DNA of 64,000 nucleotides from Treponema brennaborense (GTDB taxonomy: Bacteria > Spirochaetota > Spirochaetia > Treponematales > Treponemataceae), in assembly GCA_023666275.1 (NCBI GenBank), contig JAMPCJ010000008.1, forward strand, positions 1 to 64,000. Reading direction: 5' to 3'. This document shows, in pieces, positions 4,598-36,568 of the stretch; positions within the stretch are counted from its first letter, which is position 1, and the number at the start of each line of letters is the position of its first letter. Made by a program: the position numbers and the translations under genes. The notes under the pieces are model-generated. The model made no database searches. It was not told the origin of the DNA and saw only the letters and a program-made list of their open reading frames with translations.

Positions 4598-5635
4598 TCA
4601 AAAAGAAACCGGCAGCATTTGCTCTTGCGGCTGCATGGAAAAATACTGCGTGAATTCCGCGTCCATTTGTTCGATTGTATCGGCATTCAGTATTTTTGTT
4701 TTGATGTAATGGGCAAATGAAACATTATCGCAGAAATACGAAAAAAAACGATGCGCGCGTGTTTTGTAAAATTCCTGCGGCTGGCATTCTTTTAAATCGG
4801 AAAGAAACCGCCGCGCAGTTTCAAGCAAATCGACTGTGCGGCTTTCCGTAATATGTGTTTCCGTTCCGCCGTTAAAACGTGCTGCCGTTTGCGCGAAAAT
4901 CCATGGTTTCTGCACGGCTGCGCGTCCTATCATAATGCCGTCCGCTGCGGGGCATAACTGCGAAAACCGCACAGCCTTTTCCGCGCTTGCAATGTCGCCG
5001 TTCCCGATAATGTGTATATGCGTTCCGTATGTATTGTGTACATACTGCGCGAGTTTTTCGACGTATTCCCAGCGGGCATTCCGCCGGAATTTTTCTTTTT
5101 TTGTCCGCGGATGCAGCGTTATCTGTGTTACGCCTTCGCTGACGAGCATATCCGCGAAAGCAAATAGTGACTGTTCCGTAAATTGTTCGCCGCCGAGCCG
5201 TATTTTTACGCTGAGCCGCCGGCAGTTTCTGTCGGGAATGCCGCATTGCGGCGCTTTATCCAGTTCGTGTTTGACTTTCGCGAGCATTGCCGCTGTTTCC
5301 GCAAGCGGTTTGCTCATCCAGGCGATACCCGCTCCTGTTCTGCATATAGCATTTGCGCTGCATCCCATATTGATGTCTATGCCTAATCCGCCCAGCGATC
5401 GGACAATTTGCGCAGCTTGGGCAAGTGCGTTCGGTTTGCTGTCCGTAAGCTGCCACACGATGCGCTGCGGGACAGGTCCGTTTTTAATATAATACGATTC
5501 AAATGCGCCTCCTGCCATAAGCGAGGAGGCATGGATCATTTCTGTGTAATATTCATCGCAGTCTTGAAAGTAATGTACGGCTCTCCGCATTGCTTCGTGG
5601 CTGAGCGTTGCCATAGGGGCTAATAAAAATTTCAT
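4598..5635 (-). CDS. dus: tRNA-dihydrouridine synthase
   Basis: Dus reduces uridines in the tRNA D-loop using FMN and NADPH. The sequence opens MKFLLAPMATLSH, carries the DINMGC segment with Cys92 in the position of the catalytic acid (the usual following Pro is Ser), SVKIRLGG, TLHPRTKKE, and the FMN phosphate region IIGNGDI...DGIMIGRAA. From 5635 it is 345 residues long. An ATG 33 bp further upstream is possible, but TGATACAAT, an extended -10, lies just seven bases before the 5635 ATG, so transcription probably starts at this codon. The gene converges with the CmpB-like gene over about 10 bp. Confidence 0.9.
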   Translation of the reverse strand: MKFLLAPMATLSHEAMRRAVHYFQDCDEYYTEMIHASSLMAGGAFESYYIKNGPVPQRIVWQLTDSKPNALAQAAQIVRSLGGLGIDINMGCSANAICRTGAGIAWMSKPLAETAAMLAKVKHELDKAPQCGIPDRNCRRLSVKIRLGGEQFTEQSLFAFADMLVSEGVTQITLHPRTKKEKFRRNARWEYVEKLAQYVHNTYGTHIHIIGNGDIASAEKAVRFSQLCPAADGIMIGRAAVQKPWIFAQTAARFNGGTETHITESRTVDLLETARRFLSDLKECQPQEFYKTRAHRFFSYFCDNVSFAHYIKTKILNADTIEQMDAEFTQYFSMQPQEQMLPVSF

Positions 5636-5642
5636 AAAAACA

Positions 5643-5651
5643 ATTGTATCA
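5643..5651 (-). promoter_or_regulatory. extended -10 of dus, leaderless start
   Basis: Minus-strand TGATACAAT is an extended -10 ending seven bases before the chosen dus ATG. No Shine-Dalgarno sequence is present and no convincing -35 is seen. Confidence 0.5.
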
Positions 5652-5721
5652 TAATCTGCGAATTTCATATTATAATCATAGCAGTGGAATAAACAAGAAT
5701 AAACAGCGCTTTGTTTTATGA

Positions 5722-6555
5722 ATGCCGGTGGTGGATATCAAATGTAAAAAATGTTTAACCAATGCATTGCTTGTTCTCACTGTATTTGAAATAGTTGCAT
5801 CTTTCGCCGTCTGCATAGATGCAAAAAAGAATCAGACAGACATTTGTGCGGCTGAACTGCCGGTTCATTATCGGGATGCTTTGCGGACAGCGGATAATGA
5901 AGCGCGCGGCGGAACAGAACACGAAAGCCATGCCGTTCTTTCTCTCTGTGAAAGCGAAATTATCCGCTTCTTCTCATGTGCCGTTTTGGGCTTGACCGTT
6001 TTCAGTATCTGTTCGGAACTTTTTTATTTTTTGAAACGAAAATTATTTTTGTTTTACATTTTTGCGGTATTTTGTTTCACGCTGGAAACTGTCTGCACTT
6101 GCGTATTTTATATGATATGTGCAGTCAGTCGGCGGCAATTTTGTCTGCCGTTTTTCGATATTGCTTTTCCTGCGGAATTTTCCGTTTTTATATTTCTTTG
6201 TTTCTGTGTATCGGTTGTTTTGATGCACTGCGCGTATATTTTGATATATGCGGAAATATCGCACGGCATGTTATTCGATTCTCGGCAGATATTAACGGAA
6301 ACATCGAAAAATTATTTTGCCGAAACGAAGTGTGATATCGATTTATTTCTTTCCCGATATGATTTTTCCGCGCGTGAAAAAGAAGTTTTCGCGCTGTTTT
6401 TCAGTGAAGTCAATACGTATCAGGAAGCCGCTTCTCATCTCGGCATTTCCGCAAACACCGTGAAACAATATATTTCTTCCGGCTTGAAAAAAGCAGGAGT
6501 GTCATCTGTATATAAAATTTTTGCCGATTTCAGGAGCATGAATGATGACGAATAA
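5722..6555 (+). CDS. membrane-embedded LuxR-type regulator, cysteine-rich (first of pair)
   Basis: This 277-residue protein has about four to five hydrophobic segments in residues 12-190 and a C-terminal LuxR-type helix-turn-helix (about 205-270). The HTH is marked by FSAREKEVFALFF, YQEAASHLGISANTVKQY and SGLKKAGVSS. It contains 16 cysteines, mostly in or near the membrane segments, far above normal. A DNA-binding domain fused to a membrane domain suggests a one-component sensor that binds DNA at the membrane. The start is uncertain because no Shine-Dalgarno site is visible, and GTG codons follow within a few residues. Its 3' end overlaps the next, similar gene by 14 bp, so the two are co-translated. 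The signal sensed is unknown. Confidence 0.7.
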   Translation: MPVVDIKCKKCLTNALLVLTVFEIVASFAVCIDAKKNQTDICAAELPVHYRDALRTADNEARGGTEHESHAVLSLCESEIIRFFSCAVLGLTVFSICSELFYFLKRKLFLFYIFAVFCFTLETVCTCVFYMICAVSRRQFCLPFFDIAFPAEFSVFIFLCFCVSVVLMHCAYILIYAEISHGMLFDSRQILTETSKNYFAETKCDIDLFLSRYDFSAREKEVFALFFSEVNTYQEAASHLGISANTVKQYISSGLKKAGVSSVYKIFADFRSMNDDE

Positions 6556-11227: not shown

Positions 11228-12892
11228 ATGCCGTTTATCCGCGGGCGGAATTTTCCGCTGTTCATCTGGGGACTTTTGTGTTCTCTCTGTATTGCTTTTA
11301 TTGTGTTTCCGCTTCTTTCTGCTGCCAAGGAAACTTCTGCCGCTGACTGGATTGTTTGTGTTTCTTCTCCGCGCTGGAGGACGGCAATGTGCAATACGCT
11401 GCTGTCAACCGCTTTATCAACGCTGATTTCCGTCGTTGTCGGATATATTTATGCCTACGCGGTAACGCGCGGCGGCGTGCCGTTTGCGCGTTTTTTTTCT
11501 TTTTTCCCTGTGCTGCATTTGGTAACGCCTCCTTTTGTCGGCGGTTTGGCGTTCATTTTGCTGTTCGGCCGAAACGGGCTTATTACGGACAAATTATTGT
11601 CTTTGCAGGTTTCTTTGTATGGTTTGCCCGGACTGCTTATTGCTCAAACTTTGTGTTTTTTCCCTGTAGCGTTTCTTGTGATACGGGATTCTCTTGCGAA
11701 TATAAATTCTTCGCTTGAACAGGCAGCCCGCGGGCTCGGCGCCGGATGCTGGAAAATTTTTATTTCCGTTACTTTGCCGCTGTCGTGTCCCGGAATTATT
11801 TCCGCCGCGCTGTTTATTGCCATTTCCGTGTTAAGCGATTTCGGAAATCCGATGCTTGCCGGCGGACGATTCCGTGTGCTTGCGGTAGAAATTTATACGC
11901 AGCTGAGCGGCTGGGCGAAGGTCGGAGAAAGTGCGGCACTTGCACTGATGCTGCTTGTTCCGGCTTTGCTGCTGTTTGCTTTGCAGCGGTATATGCTTTG
12001 GCGCAGAACGCGGCAATTTGCTGTCATTGGTACTCGGAGCGCGCCGCTTCCGGCTTTGCTGCCGCCGTTTGCGGTCAGATGTGCGTTCACCGTATTTTGT
12101 TCTGTGTGTTCGCTTGTAATTCTTGTGCATTACGCGGTAATTGCCGGCGGCGCGTTTTCGAAAATTTGGGGCGTGGATGCGACTTTTACGGCAGAACATA
12201 TAAAATCGATTGCAAAATACGGCGCCGCGTTGAAAAACAGTCTGTCGTTTGCATTTTGTGCTTCCGCAGCCGCGGTTCTTCTGGCGTCGATTATTTCATA
12301 TTTTATCGTGCGCACGCGTTTCCCGTTCCGCAAAATGATGGATACTGTTGTTATGCTGCCCGCGGCGATTCCCGGTCCGCTTATGGGACTTGCATTTGTG
12401 CTTGCATTCAATTCGCCGCCGTTCAAATTGACGGGAACGTGGAGTATTGTGATTGCGGCAATGATTGTGTCGTATTTGCCCGTTTCCTGCCGCATGATGA
12501 TTTCGTCGATATCTCAAATACGGGAAACAATTGATGAAAGCGCGCGTTCTCTCGGTGCGGGATTATTCCGTGTTTATTCGGGGATAATTCTGCCGCTTAT
12601 TTCGCGCGGTGCAGCCGCATCATTTGTTTTTTGTTTTGTGCAGGCCGCAGGCACGCTTAGTACGGTGATTTTTCTTGTTTCTTTTAAAACGCCGCTCGCA
12701 TCTGTTTCTATTTTGAATCTTGCGGAACAAGGCGACTGGAGCATGGCGGCTGCGCTGGCATTTGTGCTGACGCTTTCGGTGTTTTTTGTGCTGGGAATAT
12801 ATGCGCTTGCATCGCGGTTATGGTTTTTGCCGCAATATGCGAAGGAAGAAAAATGGAACAAATACGCGTCATGCCGCCGGACATTGAAATAA
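11228..12892 (+). CDS. ABC transporter permease, fused two-domain (FbpB type)
   Basis: The 554-residue protein has about twelve membrane segments in two homologous halves. Each half carries an EAA-loop motif that contacts the ATPase: SSLEQAARGLGAGCWKIF near residue 170 and ETIDESARSLGAGLFRVY near residue 445. This fused layout is typical of iron(III) importers such as FbpB/SfuB. I start at the ATG two bases after the upstream stop. An in-frame GTG at 11204 would overlap the upstream gene and has no better ribosome site. The 3' end overlaps the ATPase gene by 40 bp, indicating one operon. Confidence 0.88.
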   Translation: MPFIRGRNFPLFIWGLLCSLCIAFIVFPLLSAAKETSAADWIVCVSSPRWRTAMCNTLLSTALSTLISVVVGYIYAYAVTRGGVPFARFFSFFPVLHLVTPPFVGGLAFILLFGRNGLITDKLLSLQVSLYGLPGLLIAQTLCFFPVAFLVIRDSLANINSSLEQAARGLGAGCWKIFISVTLPLSCPGIISAALFIAISVLSDFGNPMLAGGRFRVLAVEIYTQLSGWAKVGESAALALMLLVPALLLFALQRYMLWRRTRQFAVIGTRSAPLPALLPPFAVRCAFTVFCSVCSLVILVHYAVIAGGAFSKIWGVDATFTAEHIKSIAKYGAALKNSLSFAFCASAAAVLLASIISYFIVRTRFPFRKMMDTVVMLPAAIPGPLMGLAFVLAFNSPPFKLTGTWSIVIAAMIVSYLPVSCRMMISSISQIRETIDESARSLGAGLFRVYSGIILPLISRGAAASFVFCFVQAAGTLSTVIFLVSFKTPLASVSILNLAEQGDWSMAAALAFVLTLSVFFVLGIYALASRLWFLPQYAKEEKWNKYASCRRTLK

Positions 12893-14016: not shown

Positions 14017-14655
14017 ATGTCGTCCAAACGTTCCGTAAAAATTATTTTTGAATGCAGCGCTCCTGTCGTGTGCATTTTTGCCGTTGCTGCGGTTATTGTT
14101 TTATTGCTGGATTGCAGCGGATTTTCCGAATCGGTAAAACGATATTGTTCCGTTCCCGGTGCTGTATACAGTGCATCGCCGTTCAATTACCGATCGGCTG
14201 TCGATTATTTGCGGTTGTTTACGCACGTTATCGGAAATGATAATGCGGCACTGTGTCTGGCGGATATTTCGTTCCTTTTGCTGCTTGGTCCGGTAATCGA
14301 ACAGCGTTACGGTTCTGTTTTGTTTTTGCTGATGACATTGCTTTGCGCGCTTGCCGCCGGCGTCGTCAATGTTTGTTTTCTGCCGCATACGCTTTCGGGA
14401 TTGTCATGCATAATCTGGATGCTTTGTATTCTTGCCGCGGTTTTTGCGGCATCATCTGAAAAATGCATTCAGCTGCCGTTTTTGCTGCTGCTGATACTGT
14501 TTATCGGCAGAGAAATTGCCTGTTCCGTCAGCGGTGGAACGTTTTCGTGCATTCCGTCGGCAGCAGGCGGTTTTGCCGGCAGCGTGCTTCATTTTGCTTC
14601 ATCATCGAAAAGCACTGCGGCTGTCCGAAAAAATCCCCGTTCCGCAGCGCCGTGA
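14017..14655 (+). CDS. rhomboid-like membrane protein, probably inactive, with possible frameshift near the C-terminus
   Basis: The 212-residue protein has about six membrane helices. A loop-1 motif GPVIEQRYGS resembles the rhomboid L1 region, GLSCIIWML fits the GxSx motif with the nucleophile Ser, and AAGGFAGSVL aligns with the TM6 HxGG region but lacks the catalytic His. The TM2 His/Asn pair is also absent. It is thus probably a pseudoprotease that binds membrane substrates without cutting them. The frame ends soon after a run of six A near 14629. A shifted frame stays open and coding-like from there to about 14850, so the C-terminal tail may have been lost by an indel. The start is set by the -10 seven bases upstream. 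Confidence 0.55.
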   Translation: MSSKRSVKIIFECSAPVVCIFAVAAVIVLLLDCSGFSESVKRYCSVPGAVYSASPFNYRSAVDYLRLFTHVIGNDNAALCLADISFLLLLGPVIEQRYGSVLFLLMTLLCALAAGVVNVCFLPHTLSGLSCIIWMLCILAAVFAASSEKCIQLPFLLLLILFIGREIACSVSGGTFSCIPSAAGGFAGSVLHFASSSKSTAAVRKNPRSAAP

Positions 14656-29945: not shown

Positions 29946-29966
29946 TCATCGCTTCGCAAGTAGGGG

Positions 29967-29995
29967 TTGTCTTTCCTCCGAGATACTGCTATATT
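29967..29995 (+). promoter_or_regulatory. candidate promoter of the CsgG-like locus
   Basis: TTGTCT (29967-29972), 17 bp, TGC then TATATT (29990-29995). A GTG follows after six bases at 30002. The -35 lies within a motif GGGGTTGTCTTTCCTCC that also occurs upstream of the Sel1 gene (35113-35129). Confidence 0.4.
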
Positions 29996-30165
29996 TGCCG
30001 CGTGAGAACAGCAGAAAACAACAATATACTTGCAGAAAAATCGCCCGCTGCCGCGAAAAGTGCGGGGGGGGGGCTTCCCAAAACCTCGGCAGCCGCACAC
30101 ACGCTGACGCACCGATTCATCGGCGGCGGAAAGCCAATCGCGCTTTTTCCGAATCTCCGTTCGGC

Positions 30166-31938
30166 ATAAAAACAAATCCGTTTTTACAAACAATATCTTC
30201 TTTTGCAAATAAAACACGCGCAGCGAAAATATGCCTTGCCTTGCTTTTTGCCTTCGCATTATCCGCCGTTTTCTGCCTGCCGACATTCTGTGCCGAATAC
30301 TACACAAAAAGCAGCGTTTCGGGGAAACGCTTTGCCGTGTTTGAGCCGGCGCTGCGCGGAGTGGAAAGCGGCGATGCGGCTTGGCTTCCTACCGCCGTGG
30401 CGGAGCCGCTGCGGACAAATTTCAAGCTTTATATGGGCGTTGTGCTGATTGACATTTCCAACACCGAAAGCGTCAGGCAGATTCAGAGAAAGCAGGAATC
30501 CGGCGCATTTGACCAAAAAACCGCAGTGGAAGCGGGGCGGCTTTTGAATGCGCAGTTCGCCGTGTTTCCGACAATCACCAAAACGAAAAACACATATCAG
30601 CTTTCGTGCGCCGTAACGGATTTGCAGACGGGAGAACGTGTTGCGAGCGCGACTGTGAGCGAGGTTGCCCGCGTGAATGATTTATACGGGTAGGCTTTGG
30701 GAAAGGCGGTGCAGAACCTCGCGCCGCAAATGGGCGTGGAACTTACTTCGCTCGGAAGATTCGCGCTGAGCGGAGCAAGCGAAGATTCGTCGTTCACCGA
30801 GCAAAGCGCATTGGCGCAGCAGGACGTGAACACGCTTACTGCTATTCTGAATGATTTGGACACACGGCTTAAAAAATCCGGCACTTCTTCCTCGGCGGCT
30901 GACGAAGCACAGCGCGCGCAGGCGATGAAAATCGAGGCGGAAAAAAACTTAATGGAGCAAAAGCTCGCCGCCGCGCAGAAGCGTATGAACGACTTGCAGG
31001 ATCGCCGCCAAAAAGAAATGCGCGAAAAACAGCGCGCGGCGGAACGTTCAATGGAAGCACAGAAGAAGCTTGAAAACCTTTCTTCCGAAGTTGACAAAAA
31101 AGCCGCCGAACTGCGCTCCAAGCAAAAAGACAATATGACCCTCGAAGAAAAAATCGTTCTGCTGGAAAAAAAGAAATCGATTTACATGGAATTGAAGTCG
31201 AATGTCGGCGGACAGAAGCAGGCGATTTTCGGCCAGATAAAGAAACTGTACGACGAGCAGAAAAAAGACGAAAACGAAAAGTCGCTCTACCGCAAGGCGG
31301 AACTTGACCTTAACGGAAATCCGACCGAAAACGCAAAGCTGCGTGTGCGCGCGGAAAACGCCGCTTTGCTCGAACGCCTCGAAAAAGAGGCGCAGGAAGA
31401 AGTGCTCGGAGTTGACTCGGCTTCGGAAAAACAGCTTGCAGTTCTGCTCGCGGAAATCGAAAAAGACAAGGCGCTCATTGCAAAAAAAGGAACGACTTCT
31501 TCCGTAACGACGGCGGGAGCTTTTTCCGTAGGAAGCTACAATTCCGTGCAGTATCTTTGGAGCGCGTCCATTTTGCTGCAGCTCGGCGGAAACGAAATCG
31601 TTCGCGAAGAAATTCAAATTCATCTGGACGATATTTCAAAGGCAATTGACAAAAAAATATTTTCCAAAAGCTACGCGGCAAAAGACTACGAGGAATTTCT
31701 CGATGCAGTGGAAGTGTACGACTCGATGTTCGCGATGTCGTCGCAATTCGTATATCTTGAAGTGGACTACAAAATGGAAGCAATGCCGCAGGAATATCCG
31801 TCTTTGTACAAATACACGCCGCTTGAATACCGCATCATGAACTCGCTTAATTCTTCATGCATAAAAAAGATTGCGCCGAAGTCCGCGTCATCGTTCATAC
31901 AGTACACGCCTGTTACCGACATGCGGGGCGCAAAATGA
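30166..31938 (+). pseudogene. CsgG-like/coiled-coil envelope protein interrupted by an in-frame TAG
   Basis: One reading frame runs from a signal peptide-like stretch (AKICLALLFAFALSAVFCL near 30217) to 31938, broken by TAG at 30691. The first part resembles the CsgG/LpoB-like fold (KRFAVFEPALRG, AVEAGRLLNAQFAVFPTI, CAVTDLQTGERVASATVSE). After the TAG the same frame continues with ALGKAVQNLAPQ. A Lys/Glu/Ala-rich coiled coil of about 120 residues follows, then a C-terminal domain ending near YTPVTDMRGAK. There is no usable start codon next to the signal peptide: ATA at 30166 sits where ATG is expected. A GTG at 30002 is separated from this frame by a G-run at 30064-30073. The 3' end overlaps the next gene as ATGA. 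It looks like a recently inactivated envelope gene. Suppression of TAG cannot be excluded. Confidence 0.65.
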
Positions 31939-32925
31939 AGCGGCGTTTTACGGCGTTCGTTCTGCTTGCACTGGCGGCATTTGCCTTCGCAAAAAAACCG
32001 AAAGAAATTCCTGTCTGGGTTTTGGACGTGCAGCAAGAATTTCCTCCGAAGCTTTATATCGCACAGACGGCACGGGCGGATAAGGCAAAAGCTGCACAGG
32101 CGGCGGCAGTGGAAGAACTTTCCCGCTACATTTCGACGCAAGTGGAATCGAATTTGGAAACATCGCTTTCGGTTTTTTCCGACGGAAATTCTGCGGTAAA
32201 AAACGAGCGCATAAGCCACACTGCGCGCATTGCTTCAAACGTAAAGCTGTTTGCGCTGCGGACAACTGCGCCGTACTATGACAAAAAAAAACAGGGAATG
32301 GATTTGCGCCGCGTACATAAAGCGTAGCGAAGCCTGGAGCGCGTACAAGCCCGCAGTGGAACAGGCAAAATCGGAATTCTACGAGTTTTTGAACAAAGCG
32401 AAAAATTCTCCTCCGCTGGAAAGCCTCGTCTTTTTTGACGGCGCGGCGGAAAAAGGCGCGGACTTTTTGGAAGCATTGGAACTGGCGGTACTCATAAGCC
32501 CCAAAGACCATGCGGCATACAGCGAAGATCGGGCGGCGGTTGCCCAAGTGCCGCTCCTTGCAAAACAGGCGCGGCTTTCATGCACCGTTTGTTTGAACGT
32601 CGCCGGCGACTATGAGGGCGCGGTAAAAAACGCCTTGCTGAAAGCGTTCGAAGACTTGGGCTTTACTGTTGCGGAAAACGGATTTTACACGGCGCGCGCG
32701 GTGGTGAAACAAAACCTGAGCGGAAACGAAAGCGAAGGATTCGAACTTTATCCCGAAGCAGAAGTTTTTATTGCGCAGGGCGGCACGAAAGAAAGCGCGA
32801 GTTTTTCGGCGAAAGTTTCGGAAAAGACTTTTGCCTGGACAAAATCGCGGGCGCTGCAAACGGCATTTTCAAAATTATCACAGCAAATTCAAGATGAGTT
32901 TTCGCAAAAATTCGCTTTGCATTGA
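31935..32925 (+). pseudogene. LPP20-like envelope protein, frameshifted at a run of nine A
   Basis: The ATG overlaps the upstream stop. The product starts with a signal peptide (MKRRFTAFVLLALAAFAFA). An LPP20-like region follows with PVWVLDVQQEF, YIAQTARADKAKAAQAAAVE and ELSRYISTQVESNLE. The frame stops at 32327, after a run of nine A at 32283-32291. Dropping one A joins it to the frame that reads NREWICAAYIKRSEAWSAYK and continues for about 205 residues, to 32925. LPP20-like proteins are outer-membrane-associated and in flagellated bacteria accompany FlgO/FlgP/FlgT-type factors. The role here is unknown. The frameshift, the nonsense codon upstream and the frameshift downstream suggest that the whole locus is decaying. 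Confidence 0.7.
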
Positions 32926-32973
32926 AAGCCGTTTGCTTATGCAAGCGGTACTTAAAAAGCTGTTCACAAACCT

Positions 32974-33057
32974 GTCATCGCGATCGAGTCCAGAGCGCGC
33001 GGCAATCCGTTTTTTAAAGCGGATTGTTCCGACCGCCTGCGGCTGTCCTGCAATGAC
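32974..33057. repeat. palindromic ATTGC-type intergenic repeat, copy 2
   Basis: GTCATCGC (32974-32981) and GCAATGAC (33050-33057) form the outer arms, and GGCAATCCG and CGGATTGTT form the inner arms. The overall design is the same as the copy at 1384-1459. Confidence 0.6.
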
Positions 33058-33113
33058 AAACTGCGGCTGATGACAAGGTTTTTGAATATAAATTTTTTAT
33101 TATGGAGGATTTT

Positions 33114-33834
33114 ATGAAAAAATCATTCAATGGTGTCTTCGCCTTGGCGGCGGTGCTCGCGGTGTTTGCAGGCTGTGCTACCACGAGCAATGCGGAAAAA
33201 ACTTCCGATGCAAAAACGGCTTCGCAGAAATCCGGCAGGTTCGAGATAATCGACTGGAACGGCGCGGCGTTCGGCTCGGCGGCTCCCGCCGACTGGATGC
33301 AGTATGCGGAAGAACGCGACTACTCCGCGTTTGAAAGCACCTCCGCGGGCGAAAAAGTGAAAAACAGATTTTATGTGATTGTTTCCGGAACACGCCCCCG
33401 CGAAAAGCGCAACGGACAGCACATCCCTGAAACTTTTGCAGGAAAATGTCACAGCCCAATATGCCGCGGAAATCGCACGCGGACTGAACCAGGCAGTTGA
33501 CGCAAGATTTGCGGGCGTACTCGGCGACGACGAGGACGCACAGCAGACACTCACCGCAACCGCCGCCAAAGCCAAGTTTGCGGGATTCAGCAAAGCAAGC
33601 GACGGCTGGATTCTGCGCCAAAGCAAAAGCGATTCTTCGCAGTATATATATTCGTATATCGCGGTTTATGCCTGCGACAAAGATGTGTGGCAGAGCCAAG
33701 TGGCTGCCTACATAAAAAGCTTCGGTGTGAACTCGAAAAGCGAGAACATGAAAAAAGCTGCGGAAATGGCGGATTCTCTTGCCGACGAACTTTCCGACCC
33801 GAAAATGTTCGGCGAACTTTCGGCACAGGAATAA
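33114..33834 (+). pseudogene. small lipoprotein, frameshifted at a run of five C
   Basis: GGAGGA lies upstream of ATG 33114. The product starts with a lipoprotein signal peptide ending FAGC and continues EKTSDAKTASQKSGRFEI, DWNGAAFGSAAPADWMQYA and FYVIVSGTRP. The frame then shifts: after CCCCC near 33391-33395 it runs out of frame to a stop at 33500. Removing one C joins it to AKSATDSTSLKLLQE, and then QYAAEIARGLNQAVD, GWILRQSKSDSSQYIYSY and KMFGELSAQE, ending at 33834. The downstream part resembles domains of LPP20-like lipoproteins. It stands 188 bp after the LPP20-like gene, behind a palindromic repeat, and belongs to the same decaying cluster. Confidence 0.68.
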
Positions 33835-33844
33835 GGCGCCGCGT

Positions 33845-33917
33845 GTTATTGCGAGCCGGCTTGACGGCGAAGCAATCTCTTATGGATTGCTTCAATGCTA
33901 ACGCATTTCGCAATGAC
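33845..33917. repeat. palindromic ATTGC-type intergenic repeat, copy 3
   Basis: GTTATTGC (33845-33852) and GCAATGAC (33910-33917) form the outer arms, and AGCAATCT and GGATTGCT form the inner arms. It lies directly after the broken lipoprotein gene. Confidence 0.65.
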
Positions 33918-33935
33918 GCGCCGCTGTCGGGCAAA

Positions 33936-34058
33936 GCGCGTAAATTTGAAAATTTGCGGCATTGTCAGCGATGCAAGACGCCTAAAATCGAAAATTTTGC
34001 ACATTGTCGGTGATGCAAGACGCGCAAATTCCGAAATTTGCGGCATTGTCCGTCAGAC
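33936..34058. repeat. 43-bp tandem repeat, three units, each with an AT-rich palindrome
   Basis: Three units start near 33936, 33979 and 34022. Each contains an AT-rich dyad (AAATTTGAAAATTT, AAAATCGAAAATTTT, AAATTCCGAAATTT) followed by GC(G/A)CATTGTC and, in the first two, GATGCAAGAC. They occupy most of the 310-bp gap between the broken lipoprotein gene and the helical protein gene. There are no unique spacers, so this is not a CRISPR array. Confidence 0.65.
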
Positions 34059-34144
34059 AAAATCAATTTGTTGAAAAATTCGGTGTTTCGCGCAAACGGC
34101 GAAGCGCCGAATTTTATTTTTTTATAAAAGGAGTTGGAGGGAGC

Positions 34145-34870
34145 ATGAAAATCAATTCAATACAGTTATCCCGCCTCAGAAACGACGAGGTGTACACGTT
34201 TCATTTGGGGGCATCCGCGCTGGCGGCCGCCGTCGATTCCGAACTGCTGAAGCCGCTGTGCGCGGTGTACACGGCGGCGTTTGCAAAGCTGAAAACGGCG
34301 ATTGATGTCGGTTCGGAAAAAAGCACGGCGGGCGAGGCGCGCGATGCGGATGCGGCGCGGGATACTGCCTGGCGCGGATGCAATGCGTACATAAAGGCAG
34401 TTGCGGGATATTCTCCCGATGCGGCGGAACGCGCGGCGGCGGACAAAATCGCGGTGCTGTTTGAAAAATACAAAAATCCCGTGAACCTTTCGCTCTCGGA
34501 AGAAACTTCCGTTTTGGACAACCTGATCGAAAGCGTCGAAGCGCAGGGAACCGATGCAATCGAAGCGGCGGGATTCGGCAAGTGGCTTGCGGATTTGAAG
34601 TCGAAGCAGGATGCGTACAAGACAGCGGCAAAAACGCACGTGAGCGATGCGGCGGCAAAGGTGCTCGGCGAAGTGAAAACCGCCCGCGCGGAAGCGGACG
34701 AGGCATACTCTTCCGTAGTGACAATGGCGGAAGCGCTGGCGGTGGTGCAGGGCGAAGATGCGTTTGCGAAATTCGCTTCGGAACTGAATGTGATAATCGA
34801 CCGCCAGAACCGAACGATGAAAAACCGCAGTGCGAAAAGCGCTTCCGCAAGCCCGCAGGGCGAAGACTGA
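34145..34870 (+). CDS. helical protein of unknown function (possibly DUF6261-like)
   Basis: The 241-residue product starts MKINSIQLSRLRNDEVYTFH, and GGAGG lies just before the ATG. It lacks a signal peptide or membrane helix. It is predicted to be almost entirely helical, being rich in Ala, Glu and Lys, with KPLCAVYTAAFAKLKTAID, NAYIKAVAGYSPDAAERAA and VLDNLIESVEAQG. The opening pattern recalls small helical proteins of the DUF6261 type known mainly from Bacteroidetes, a low-confidence resemblance. Unlike the three genes upstream it is intact. It is flanked by repeats on both sides. No function can be given. Confidence 0.6.
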   Translation: MKINSIQLSRLRNDEVYTFHLGASALAAAVDSELLKPLCAVYTAAFAKLKTAIDVGSEKSTAGEARDADAARDTAWRGCNAYIKAVAGYSPDAAERAAADKIAVLFEKYKNPVNLSLSEETSVLDNLIESVEAQGTDAIEAAGFGKWLADLKSKQDAYKTAAKTHVSDAAAKVLGEVKTARAEADEAYSSVVTMAEALAVVQGEDAFAKFASELNVIIDRQNRTMKNRSAKSASASPQGED

Positions 34871-34899
34871 AAAACATTTGCTTCGAAGCGGGCAGCATT

Positions 34900-34926
34900 G
34901 TCATCGCGAGTGAAACGAAGCGATCC
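34900..34926. repeat. half copy of the palindromic ATTGC-type repeat
   Basis: GTCATCGCGAG followed by AAGCGATCCG reproduces the left arm and inner arm of the repeat. No right arm is seen before the Sel1 leader. The rest of 34871-35083 holds no gene, only GC-rich sequence sharing short words with the 29.6-29.9 kb repeats. Confidence 0.45.
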
Positions 34927-35083
34927 GATAACGGCGCGTTCACTTGCCGCAGTCCGCGGGCTGGCTGTGGCGCTATCGACGGATATCGATTTGTATCGAA
35001 TGCGGCACGTCTGTGCGCATTCGAGCCAACGGCGCCCCGACAAGTACACGGAATGAACGCGGTGAATGCGCCGTTAGAGGTTT

Positions 35084-35150
35084 GGAGGAAAGAAAACCCC
35101 GCCTCGCAATTAGGGGTTGTCTTTCCTCCAAAAGATAAATTTCAGGAGGA
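35084..35150 (+). promoter_or_regulatory. long hairpin upstream of the Sel1 gene with possible anti-Shine-Dalgarno arm
   Basis: GGAGGAAAGAAAACCCC (35084-35100) and GGGGTTGTCTTTCCTCC (35113-35129) form a 17-position stem with one mismatch and a 12-base loop. The end of the right arm, TCCTCC, is also complementary to the GGAGGA Shine-Dalgarno site at 35145-35150. The two pairings are mutually exclusive. The right arm alone recurs at 29963-29979. A translational switch is an inference. No T-run follows, so it is not a terminator. Confidence 0.5.
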
Positions 35151-35154
35151 CAGT

Positions 35155-36054
35155 ATGAAACATAGAAAAAAAATCGGGGCGCTGCTTGCCTGCCTTTTTG
35201 CATTCGCCGCCGCCTTTGCGCAGGAGGCTTCTGCACCGCATTTTTCGTTTTTTACAAAATCGGACTATGACGATTCCGTAGAAGAAATAAAAGCGGCGCA
35301 CGAGGCTGGCGATACGACAAAAGCAAAAGAACTCTACAAACAGTATGAAAAAAGCGCGAAACTCGGCATTCCGCATGCGCAGTATGTTGTCGGAGTATGC
35401 TGTTTTAAGGGCTGGGGAACCGGACAGAACTACAAAAAAGCACTCGGATGGATCAAGAAGTCTGCGGAGCAGGGGTTTGCTGATGGGCAATGCGGACTTG
35501 GCTTGTGTTACATAGAAGGTATTGGTATAACGCAAGATTACACGCAGGCATTCGTGTGGTTTAAGAAGTCCGCGGAGCAAGGTAATGCAGTTGCACAATG
35601 CTGTCTCGGTGACTGCTATTATTACGGCAGAGGCACGGAGCAGGACGATGCACCGGCATTCGTTTGGTATAAGAAATCTGCGGAGCAAGGGTTTGCTGAT
35701 GGGCAATGCGGACTTGGCTTGTGTTACATAGAAGGTATTGGTATAACGCAAGATTACACGCAGGCATTCGTGTGGTTTAAGAAGTCCGCGGAGCAAGGTA
35801 ATGCAGTTGCACAATGCTGTCTCGGTGACTGCTATTATTACGGCAGAGGCACGGAGCGAAACTACGCGCAGGCATTCATCTGGTTTGAGAAGTCCGCGAA
35901 GCAAGGGGATGAGTTAGGGCAATACAGCCTCGCTCTGTACTACGAAAACGGCAAAGGTATAAAGCAAGACAAAACCCAAGCACGCTATTGGTACGAAAAA
36001 TCTGCTGCGCAAGGGCTTGAGTTGGCGCAAGACGCGCTTAGGGAAAGATTTTGA
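35155..36054 (+). CDS. secreted Sel1-repeat protein with recent internal duplication
   Basis: The 299-residue protein has a signal peptide (about 1-22, ending AAAFAQ) and an array of about six to seven 36-residue Sel1-like repeats, such as AQYVVGVCCFKGWGTGQNYK and YEKSAAQGLELAQDAL. Sel1 repeats are helical hairpins that mediate protein contacts, often in secreted or envelope-associated factors. Two successive repeats form a 72-residue block that is repeated almost perfectly at DNA level (starting at 35475 and 35691), a recent 216-bp tandem duplication. AGGAGGA lies before the ATG. The gene is followed after 22 bp by an AT-rich orphan gene, probably in the same operon. Confidence 0.85.
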   Translation: MKHRKKIGALLACLFAFAAAFAQEASAPHFSFFTKSDYDDSVEEIKAAHEAGDTTKAKELYKQYEKSAKLGIPHAQYVVGVCCFKGWGTGQNYKKALGWIKKSAEQGFADGQCGLGLCYIEGIGITQDYTQAFVWFKKSAEQGNAVAQCCLGDCYYYGRGTEQDDAPAFVWYKKSAEQGFADGQCGLGLCYIEGIGITQDYTQAFVWFKKSAEQGNAVAQCCLGDCYYYGRGTERNYAQAFIWFEKSAKQGDELGQYSLALYYENGKGIKQDKTQARYWYEKSAAQGLELAQDALRERF

Positions 36055-36076
36055 TAATATTTAGGAGGAAAATTTT

Positions 36077-36568
36077 ATGTCTGGAATACACAAAGGTCGT
36101 GCTTCAAAAGGGCGAAAAACTGTTCATTTACATATAAAATTCAGAAATGGAAAAGAAGATATCGATAAAATCACGAGTGTTCAGGAAGCAGCAAAAATTA
36201 TTATAGAAATTATACATTCATTTGATACAGGAAAACCCGACTTGAATGATTTTTGTTCAAACAATTTATTTTCAATAACAAAAACTAACATCACTTTGAA
36301 AACAGATGATAGAGGAGATATACTGACACACCCCTTTGTCGCTAAAGATTCCAAATTGTATACTAACAGTAAAAGGTGTTATTCAGAACCGTATGATTTG
36401 ATTGTTCTAAATCAATCTAAACAAAAAGTTTTGCGGCAGTGCAGACTTTCAAAAGAATGGCGCAACTGTGAATACGACCATCAAGGGAATTATCTTTGGG
36501 CTTTGGCAGAATTAGTCAACAAATATTGCAGTAATTATTTTGTGATAGAAACTTGTGAAGAGTGTTAA
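36077..36568 (+). CDS. AT-rich orphan gene, unknown protein
   Basis: The 163-residue product is preceded by AGGAGG at the right distance. It is soluble and basic at the start (GRASKGRKTVHLHIKF). It contains SVQEAAKIIIEIIHSFD and CSNNLFSITKTNITLK, then a short cysteine-containing end. I do not recognise the family. Its base composition is clearly richer in A and T than every neighbour, with many AAA, ATT and AAT codons, a sign of recent acquisition. It follows the Sel1-repeat gene closely, so the two may work together, for example as partner or cargo. That link is speculative. Confidence 0.6.
   Translation: MSGIHKGRASKGRKTVHLHIKFRNGKEDIDKITSVQEAAKIIIEIIHSFDTGKPDLNDFCSNNLFSITKTNITLKTDDRGDILTHPFVAKDSKLYTNSKRCYSEPYDLIVLNQSKQKVLRQCRLSKEWRNCEYDHQGNYLWALAELVNKYCSNYFVIETCEEC

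What the first reader, a model, noticed from the sequence alone, without database searches (positions are those of the whole stretch)
30166..36568. Candidate novel envelope system: CsgG-like coiled-coil protein, LPP20-like protein, lipoprotein, helical protein, Sel1 protein, orphan
Six genes in a row on one strand, most with signal peptides or a lipobox, form a coherent envelope-directed unit with translational coupling between the first two. CsgG-like and LPP20-like proteins are known to form outer-membrane assemblies such as curli export or flagellar FlgO/P/T disks, but this set with a long coiled coil is not one I recognise. The first three genes are broken in this strain, so related strains may hold the intact system.
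Basis: partly seen in the sequence, partly recalled or inferred. Interest (0 to 1): 0.6.

Follow-up and report, generated by a model that had tools for sequence, protein, structure and literature searches.

The report
Decayed treponeme surface-display gene cassette
The first three genes are a damaged copy of an apparently undescribed three-gene outer-envelope cassette found in many gut and rumen relatives of the syphilis spirochaete, where the main protein carries interchangeable tips, some of which the cell deliberately hypermutates; the other three genes do not belong to it.

Summary
Only the first three of the six genes form a unit. Gene A (30166-31938) is a CsgG/LpoB-like domain, a coiled coil and a new conserved domain D. 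Gene B (31935-32925) is an LPP20-type protein. Gene C (33114-33834) is a lipoprotein. All three are broken here, but intact A, B and C lie side by side in many Treponemataceae: A has B within 6 kb at 49 of 115 places (0.9 expected), B has C at 101 of 150, almost always on one strand. A modelled B resembles Helicobacter HP1454; its second domain resembles outer-membrane lipoproteins (PelC, TraT, CsgG, LptE). In relatives the end of A is interchangeable: FGE/C-lectin, BspA-type leucine-rich repeats, a probable beta-barrel, or nothing. In four genomes the FGE tip of A is the variable region of a diversity-generating retroelement (mismatches at template adenines: 27/27, 27/28, 24/25, 26/31). The window copy has no tip, and no such retroelement was found in its genome. 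I read the cassette as an outer-membrane display scaffold for variable tips; this mechanism is inferred. Genes 4-6 lie beyond a strong terminator and are not co-conserved. A flagellar role is not supported.

The parts
30166..31938 (+). Gene A (broken): CsgG/LpoB-like domain, coiled coil, domain D; two pieces, 30166-30693 and 30697-31938, separated by an in-frame TAG; true start unclear
30286..30777 (+). N domain of A: LpoB/CsgG-like periplasmic domain
   Evidence: Pfam LpoB 3.8e-6, over cut-off, in the window piece; alignment with six relatives; CsgG 9.6e-8 in relative L111
30820..31434 (+). coiled-coil stalk of A (approximate limits)
   Evidence: Long charged heptad-like stretch; only weak hits to SMC/Rad50 coiled coils; aligned in relatives
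31435..31935 (+). domain D of A: conserved, no Pfam or PDB relative found by sequence
31935..32925 (+). Gene B (broken): LPP20-type exported protein, HP1454-like; pieces 31935-32327 and 32284-32925
   Evidence: relatives: LPP20 in 22 of 22, fold like 4kzs
33114..33834 (+). Gene C (broken): lipoprotein; pieces 33114-33500 and about 33394-33834
34075..34115 (+). strong intrinsic terminator-like hairpin closing the A-B-C unit (17 pairs, T tail)
29961..30120 (+). repeat-borne leader upstream of A: extended -10 promoter-like site 29967-29995 and poly-G(10) tract 30064-30073; possible phase-variable leader

Best explanation
The region is a decayed, tip-less copy of a treponeme A-B-C envelope cassette. 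Shown: A is an exported protein with a CsgG/LpoB-type domain, a coiled coil and a conserved D domain; in relatives it usually ends in an interchangeable module (FGE/C-lectin, BspA-type LRR, or a probable beta-barrel). B is an LPP20 domain plus a PelC/CsgG-type domain. C is a conserved lipoprotein. The genes stay together across genomes. In some relatives the C-lectin tip of A is mutated by a neighbouring diversity-generating retroelement. Inferred: the CsgG/PelC-type domains of A and B, with lipoprotein C, assemble at the inner face of the outer membrane; the coiled coil and D carry the tip to or through the membrane, where it binds variable ligands such as neighbouring cells, host glycans or phages. 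In the window the unit has no tip and has lost its reading frames, and is probably a pseudogene cluster.
For: Intact relatives in Treponemataceae. Conserved adjacency far above chance and on one strand. Twenty-five further loci with B-C and mostly A. Pfam LpoB/CsgG in A, FGE in 13 of 27 A proteins, LRR_5 in 4. LPP20 in 22 of 22 B proteins. B model with pLDDT 85 matching HP1454, then PelC, LptE, TraT, CsgG, FlgT. Template and variable repeats with adenine-biased mismatches, the variable repeat lying at the end of A, in four genomes, with a reverse transcriptase nearby and, in L112, an HRDC accessory gene. Treponema denticola DGR targets are FGE-type, mostly lipoproteins, and thought to be surface-exposed (PMC4891356).
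Against: No experiment; assembly and surface exposure are inferred from folds. The model of C is poor (pLDDT 63). The beta-barrel tips rest on one sub-threshold Pfam hit and on inspection. The broken state in the window may partly be sequencing error at homopolymer tracts. B and C also occur without A (67 clusters), so the cassette may not always act as a trio.
Confidence: 0.55

Rival explanations
1. Flagellar accessory disk: A, B and C are treponeme counterparts of FlgO/FlgP/FlgT or of the Helicobacter FlgP-HP1454-HP1456 group, stabilising the envelope around periplasmic flagella.
For: B resembles HP1454 and its second domain resembles FlgT (Z 8.8); FlgT_N in 2 of 22 B proteins; HP1454 and HP1456 interact with FlgP and FapH (PMC11756786).
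Against: A 1.1-Mb complete Treponemataceae genome (by size probably T. pallidum, which is flagellated) has no A, B or C; A has variable, sometimes retroelement-diversified tips, unexpected for a motor part; no flagellar genes recognised beside the cassettes read; deletion of hp1456 had no motility effect (PMC11756786).
Confidence: 0.08
2. Curli-like or other CsgG-type secretion channel that exports a substrate, with the tips of A as plug or substrate.
For: CsgG/LpoB-type domain in A and PelC/CsgG-type domain in B.
Against: Only part of the CsgG profile is matched (55-99 of 210); no conserved substrate gene recurs beside the cassette; the tip is fused to A rather than secreted separately.
Confidence: 0.15
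3. LpoB-like regulation: the A N domain contacts a peptidoglycan synthase and the cassette senses ligands to adjust cell-wall growth.
For: Pfam LpoB is the best curated match of the window piece.
Against: The NCBIfam LpoB equivalog score is far below cut-off (29.5 against 110.55); the architecture is unlike LpoB; the N domain also matches CsgG.
Confidence: 0.08
4. The genes are intact in the organism: the stop and the two frame breaks are sequencing errors or reversible homopolymer phase variants. (This concerns the state of the copy and can be true together with the display reading.)
For: Both frame breaks lie at homopolymer tracts; the fragments remain well conserved; the genome has many poly-G tracts and some contigs end in one; poly-G tracts lie upstream of B in two relatives.
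Against: Four separate faults (no proper start, a stop, two frame breaks) in 3 kb while other genes of the window keep long open frames; the TAG is not at a homopolymer.
Confidence: 0.3

Closest known systems
Treponema denticola DGR target TvpA and its paralogues
   Same: FGE/C-lectin tip whose C-terminal segment is a variable region, with reverse transcriptase, template repeat and accessory gene; exported, thought to be surface-exposed (PMC4891356)
   Different: No CsgG/LpoB domain, coiled coil or D domain is mentioned in the passages read, and no B or C partners; the cassette described here also uses LRR, barrel-like or no tips
Helicobacter pylori HP1454-HP1456 (Lpp20) operon
   Same: B matches HP1454 over nearly its whole length (Foldseek 1.2e-6); the best, weak, match of C is HP1456; in both organisms the two genes are close together
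   Different: No counterpart of A is known there; sequence similarity is very low; the C match is not significant (E 0.097)
CsgG / PelC / TraT / LptE outer-membrane lipoprotein fold
   Same: Second domain of B and, by sequence, the N domain of A
   Different: No secretion substrate or partner genes of those systems seen; oligomeric state unknown
FlgO/FlgP/FlgT flagellar disk proteins
   Same: LPP20-type and FlgT-type domains in B
   Different: No flagellar linkage found; variable tips on A

Membership tests
LPP20 (PF02169) | Pfam LPP20 domain in gene B | tested here: met
   22 of 22 relatives of B match, best 3.5e-10; the broken window piece alone is sub-threshold (0.027); the B model matches the LPP20-family protein HP1454
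LPP20 (PF02169) | gene C also an LPP20 protein | tested here: inconclusive
   No Pfam match, no profile similarity to B, poor model whose top hit is Lpp20 HP1456 at E 0.097
CsgG/LpoB superfamily | CsgG or LpoB domain over the curated cut-off in gene A | tested here: met
   Window piece LpoB 27.3 bits against 22.3; L111 CsgG 32 against 20.8; 5 LpoB and 3 CsgG among 27 A proteins at E 1e-3
LpoB, activator of PBP1B | NCBIfam equivalog TIGR02722 score over cut-off | tested here: not met
   29.5 bits against 110.55
Curli secretion system | full CsgG pore domain and curli partner genes | tested here: inconclusive
   Partial CsgG profile match only; no recurrent substrate gene near the cassette; pore not testable
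Flagellar FlgO/FlgP/FlgT disk | linkage to or co-occurrence with flagella | tested here: inconclusive
   No flagellar genes recognised by eye near 25 loci, no systematic flagellar search was run; a complete 1.1-Mb treponeme lacks A, B and C
Diversity-generating retroelement target | VR in the gene, TR nearby, mismatches at TR adenines, RT nearby | tested here: met
   Met in relatives for gene A: L112, L138, L139 and, weaker and with only an RT fragment, L124/L140
Diversity-generating retroelement target | same features in the window and its genome | tested here: not met
   No DGR RT match in the own genome while 52 of 195 related genomes match; window gene A has no FGE tip
Surface display complex | surface exposure of A and complex formation of A, B and C | not testable with these tools
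   needs experiment

The most novel reading that the evidence does not exclude
An apparently undescribed modular outer-membrane display platform of treponemes: a CsgG/PelC-type assembly of A, B and C that presents interchangeable tips, hypermutated by retroelements in some species and switched on and off by poly-G tracts in others.
Probability: 0.35. Interest if true: 0.75.

Novelty: new variant of a known kind. Interest (0 to 1): 0.55.

Why it matters
How spirochaetes place proteins on their surface is poorly understood, and the targets of diversity-generating retroelements rarely come with a recognisable presentation apparatus. A conserved trio in which the diversified protein is built on a CsgG/LpoB-type base and travels with two conserved partners would give a concrete, testable handle on both questions. 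An intact cassette exists in a cultured rumen species, Treponema saccharophilum DSM 2985.

Tried and rejected
Six-gene unit: rejected (terminator, no co-conservation). A first genome-contig scan with gene A alone found nothing; the conserved C subfamily worked. Viral contigs: no relative of C. PDB sequence search with profiles of N, D and C: nothing; B only weakly 4kzs (E 0.15). B-C homology by profile comparison: none. Model of C too poor to interpret. Literature: no paper found that joins LPP20, CsgG/LpoB and DGRs in spirochaetes; only openly licensed papers are held, so this is weak evidence of novelty.

Full report
WHAT IS IN THE SEQUENCE. Gene A runs to 31938 and is cut by an in-frame TAG at 30691-30693; the proposed start, 30166, is ATA, and no start codon with a ribosome-binding site stands in frame just ahead of the signal peptide. 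Gene B begins inside the stop of A (ATGA, 31935) and loses its frame near 32.28 kb at an A tract. Gene C starts at 33114 with a lipobox and loses its frame near 33.39 kb at a C tract. A terminator-like hairpin of 17 pairs with a T tail follows at 34075-34115, before gene 4 (DUF6261, Pfam 1.6e-31), a Sel1 gene and an orphan with third-position GC 0.26. Relatives of gene 4 do not lie near A/B/C, and genes 4-6 have no similar protein in the 25 loci or the other fetched neighbourhoods. The unit is therefore A-B-C.

RELATIVES. Gene A has intact relatives of about 750-1,200 codons in several Treponemataceae. Profiles of domain D, B and C were searched in 195 genomes of the family: 78, 143 and 110 genomes match. 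Among the places listed there, A has B within 6 kb at 49 of 115 places where about 0.9 would be expected, and B has C at 101 of 150 where about 1.3 would be expected; all 49 A-B pairs and 100 of 101 B-C pairs are on the same strand, in several gene orders (the B and C tables were cut, so these are lower bounds). A search with C brought 25 loci from gut, rumen and faecal treponemes, among them Treponema saccharophilum DSM 2985 (L127); nearly all carry B then C, and most then A. In the whole phylum domain D is found in 32 of 393 genomes, mainly of this family.

DOMAINS. The A piece upstream of the TAG reaches Pfam LpoB over its cut-off; relative L111 reaches both CsgG and LpoB. Then follow a coiled coil and domain D, which matched nothing convincing in Pfam or, by sequence, in the PDB. 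Past D the protein is interchangeable: among 27 A proteins 13 carry FGE-sulfatase, 4 carry BspA-type LRR and one a sub-threshold outer-membrane barrel; others have barrel-like tails by inspection, and L116 and the window have none. All 22 B relatives match LPP20. The model of B (mean pLDDT 85, pTM 0.76) matches Helicobacter HP1454 over 303 columns (E 1.2e-6); its second domain resembles PelC, TraT, LptE, CsgG and FlgT (Z 8-10, rmsd 3.4-4.3 over 107-117 residues for most; Z near 8 alone is weak, but the list is a consistent family of outer-membrane lipoproteins). C is strongly conserved, but its model is poor and its best fold hit, Lpp20 HP1456, is not significant. HP1454 and HP1456 are in one operon in H. 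pylori and interact with flagellar accessories, but deletion of hp1456 did not affect motility (PMC11756786).

RETROELEMENTS. In L112 gene A ends in a variable region (12522-12702) that differs from a template repeat (14356-14536) at 27 positions, all 27 of them template adenines (p 8e-16). The locus also has an HRDC accessory gene and a reverse transcriptase (RVT_1 1.9e-21). The same holds for A in L138 (27 of 28) and L139 (24 of 25, plus a second target), and with more other differences in L124/L140 (26 of 31, where only a fragment of the reverse transcriptase lies on the contig); in L107 the target is a separate FGE gene downstream. In T. denticola the DGR targets are FGE proteins of the TvpA type, mostly lipoproteins thought to be at the surface (PMC4891356). 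The window genome has no match to this reverse transcriptase, whereas 52 of 195 related genomes do.

POSSIBLE PHASE VARIATION. A poly-G tract of 10 (30064-30073) lies in a repeat-borne leader upstream of A, with a promoter-like site at 29967-29995. T. saccharophilum has G10 about 20 nt before the first start codon of B, and L131 has C10 306 nt before B; these are two of only three G or C tracts of 8 or more in 433 kb of fetched loci. Poly-G tracts of T. pallidum are discussed in the literature in the context of phase variation (PMC7864442, seen only as a search result). This is suggestive only.

MECHANISM. Shown: conserved linkage, domain content, interchangeable tips, adenine-specific diversification of the tip in some relatives. 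Inferred: assembly of A, B and C at the outer membrane, projection of the tip, ligand binding. The flagellar and curli readings fit less well (see rivals). The window copy most likely decayed; sequencing error or reversible switching remains possible.

LIMITS. The literature search covers openly licensed papers only. The gene-neighbour reading was done by eye on ORFs, without systematic annotation of flagellar genes, and its printout was cut in the middle.

Noticed in passing
window 29961-30120 and 35062-35134; own genome C2:89170, C8:3627, C16:110417 (L146, L149, L150): A repeat containing TAGGGGTTGTCTTTCCTCC (up to one mismatch) occurs five times; two copies precede lipoprotein genes (one BspA-like by its repeats) with a poly-G run in the signal-peptide region, and contig C8 ends inside one such run, suggesting phase-variable surface proteins.
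   Followed up: partly
L163:2336-4183 and 5440-6443 (own genome C16): BspA-type leucine-rich-repeat lipoprotein genes of the same organism with the same signal-peptide start (LTSWGG) that carries the poly-G run elsewhere; one appears split across frames there.
   Followed up: no
window 35470-35860: The Sel1 gene holds two almost identical stretches of about 170 bases, 216 bases apart, a recent internal duplication.
   Followed up: no
window 36077-36568: Orphan with low third-position GC (0.26), no family match, probably recently acquired.
   Followed up: no
L124 10248-13844: Between its two FGE domains this A protein carries a segment resembling a conserved motif of protein C (ELKADMTGLREET), as if exchanged between neighbouring genes.
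   Followed up: no
L010 5821-13694: Two A genes, B, C (opposite strand) and two further small lipoprotein genes in one stretch; the extra lipoproteins have no Pfam match.
   Followed up: no
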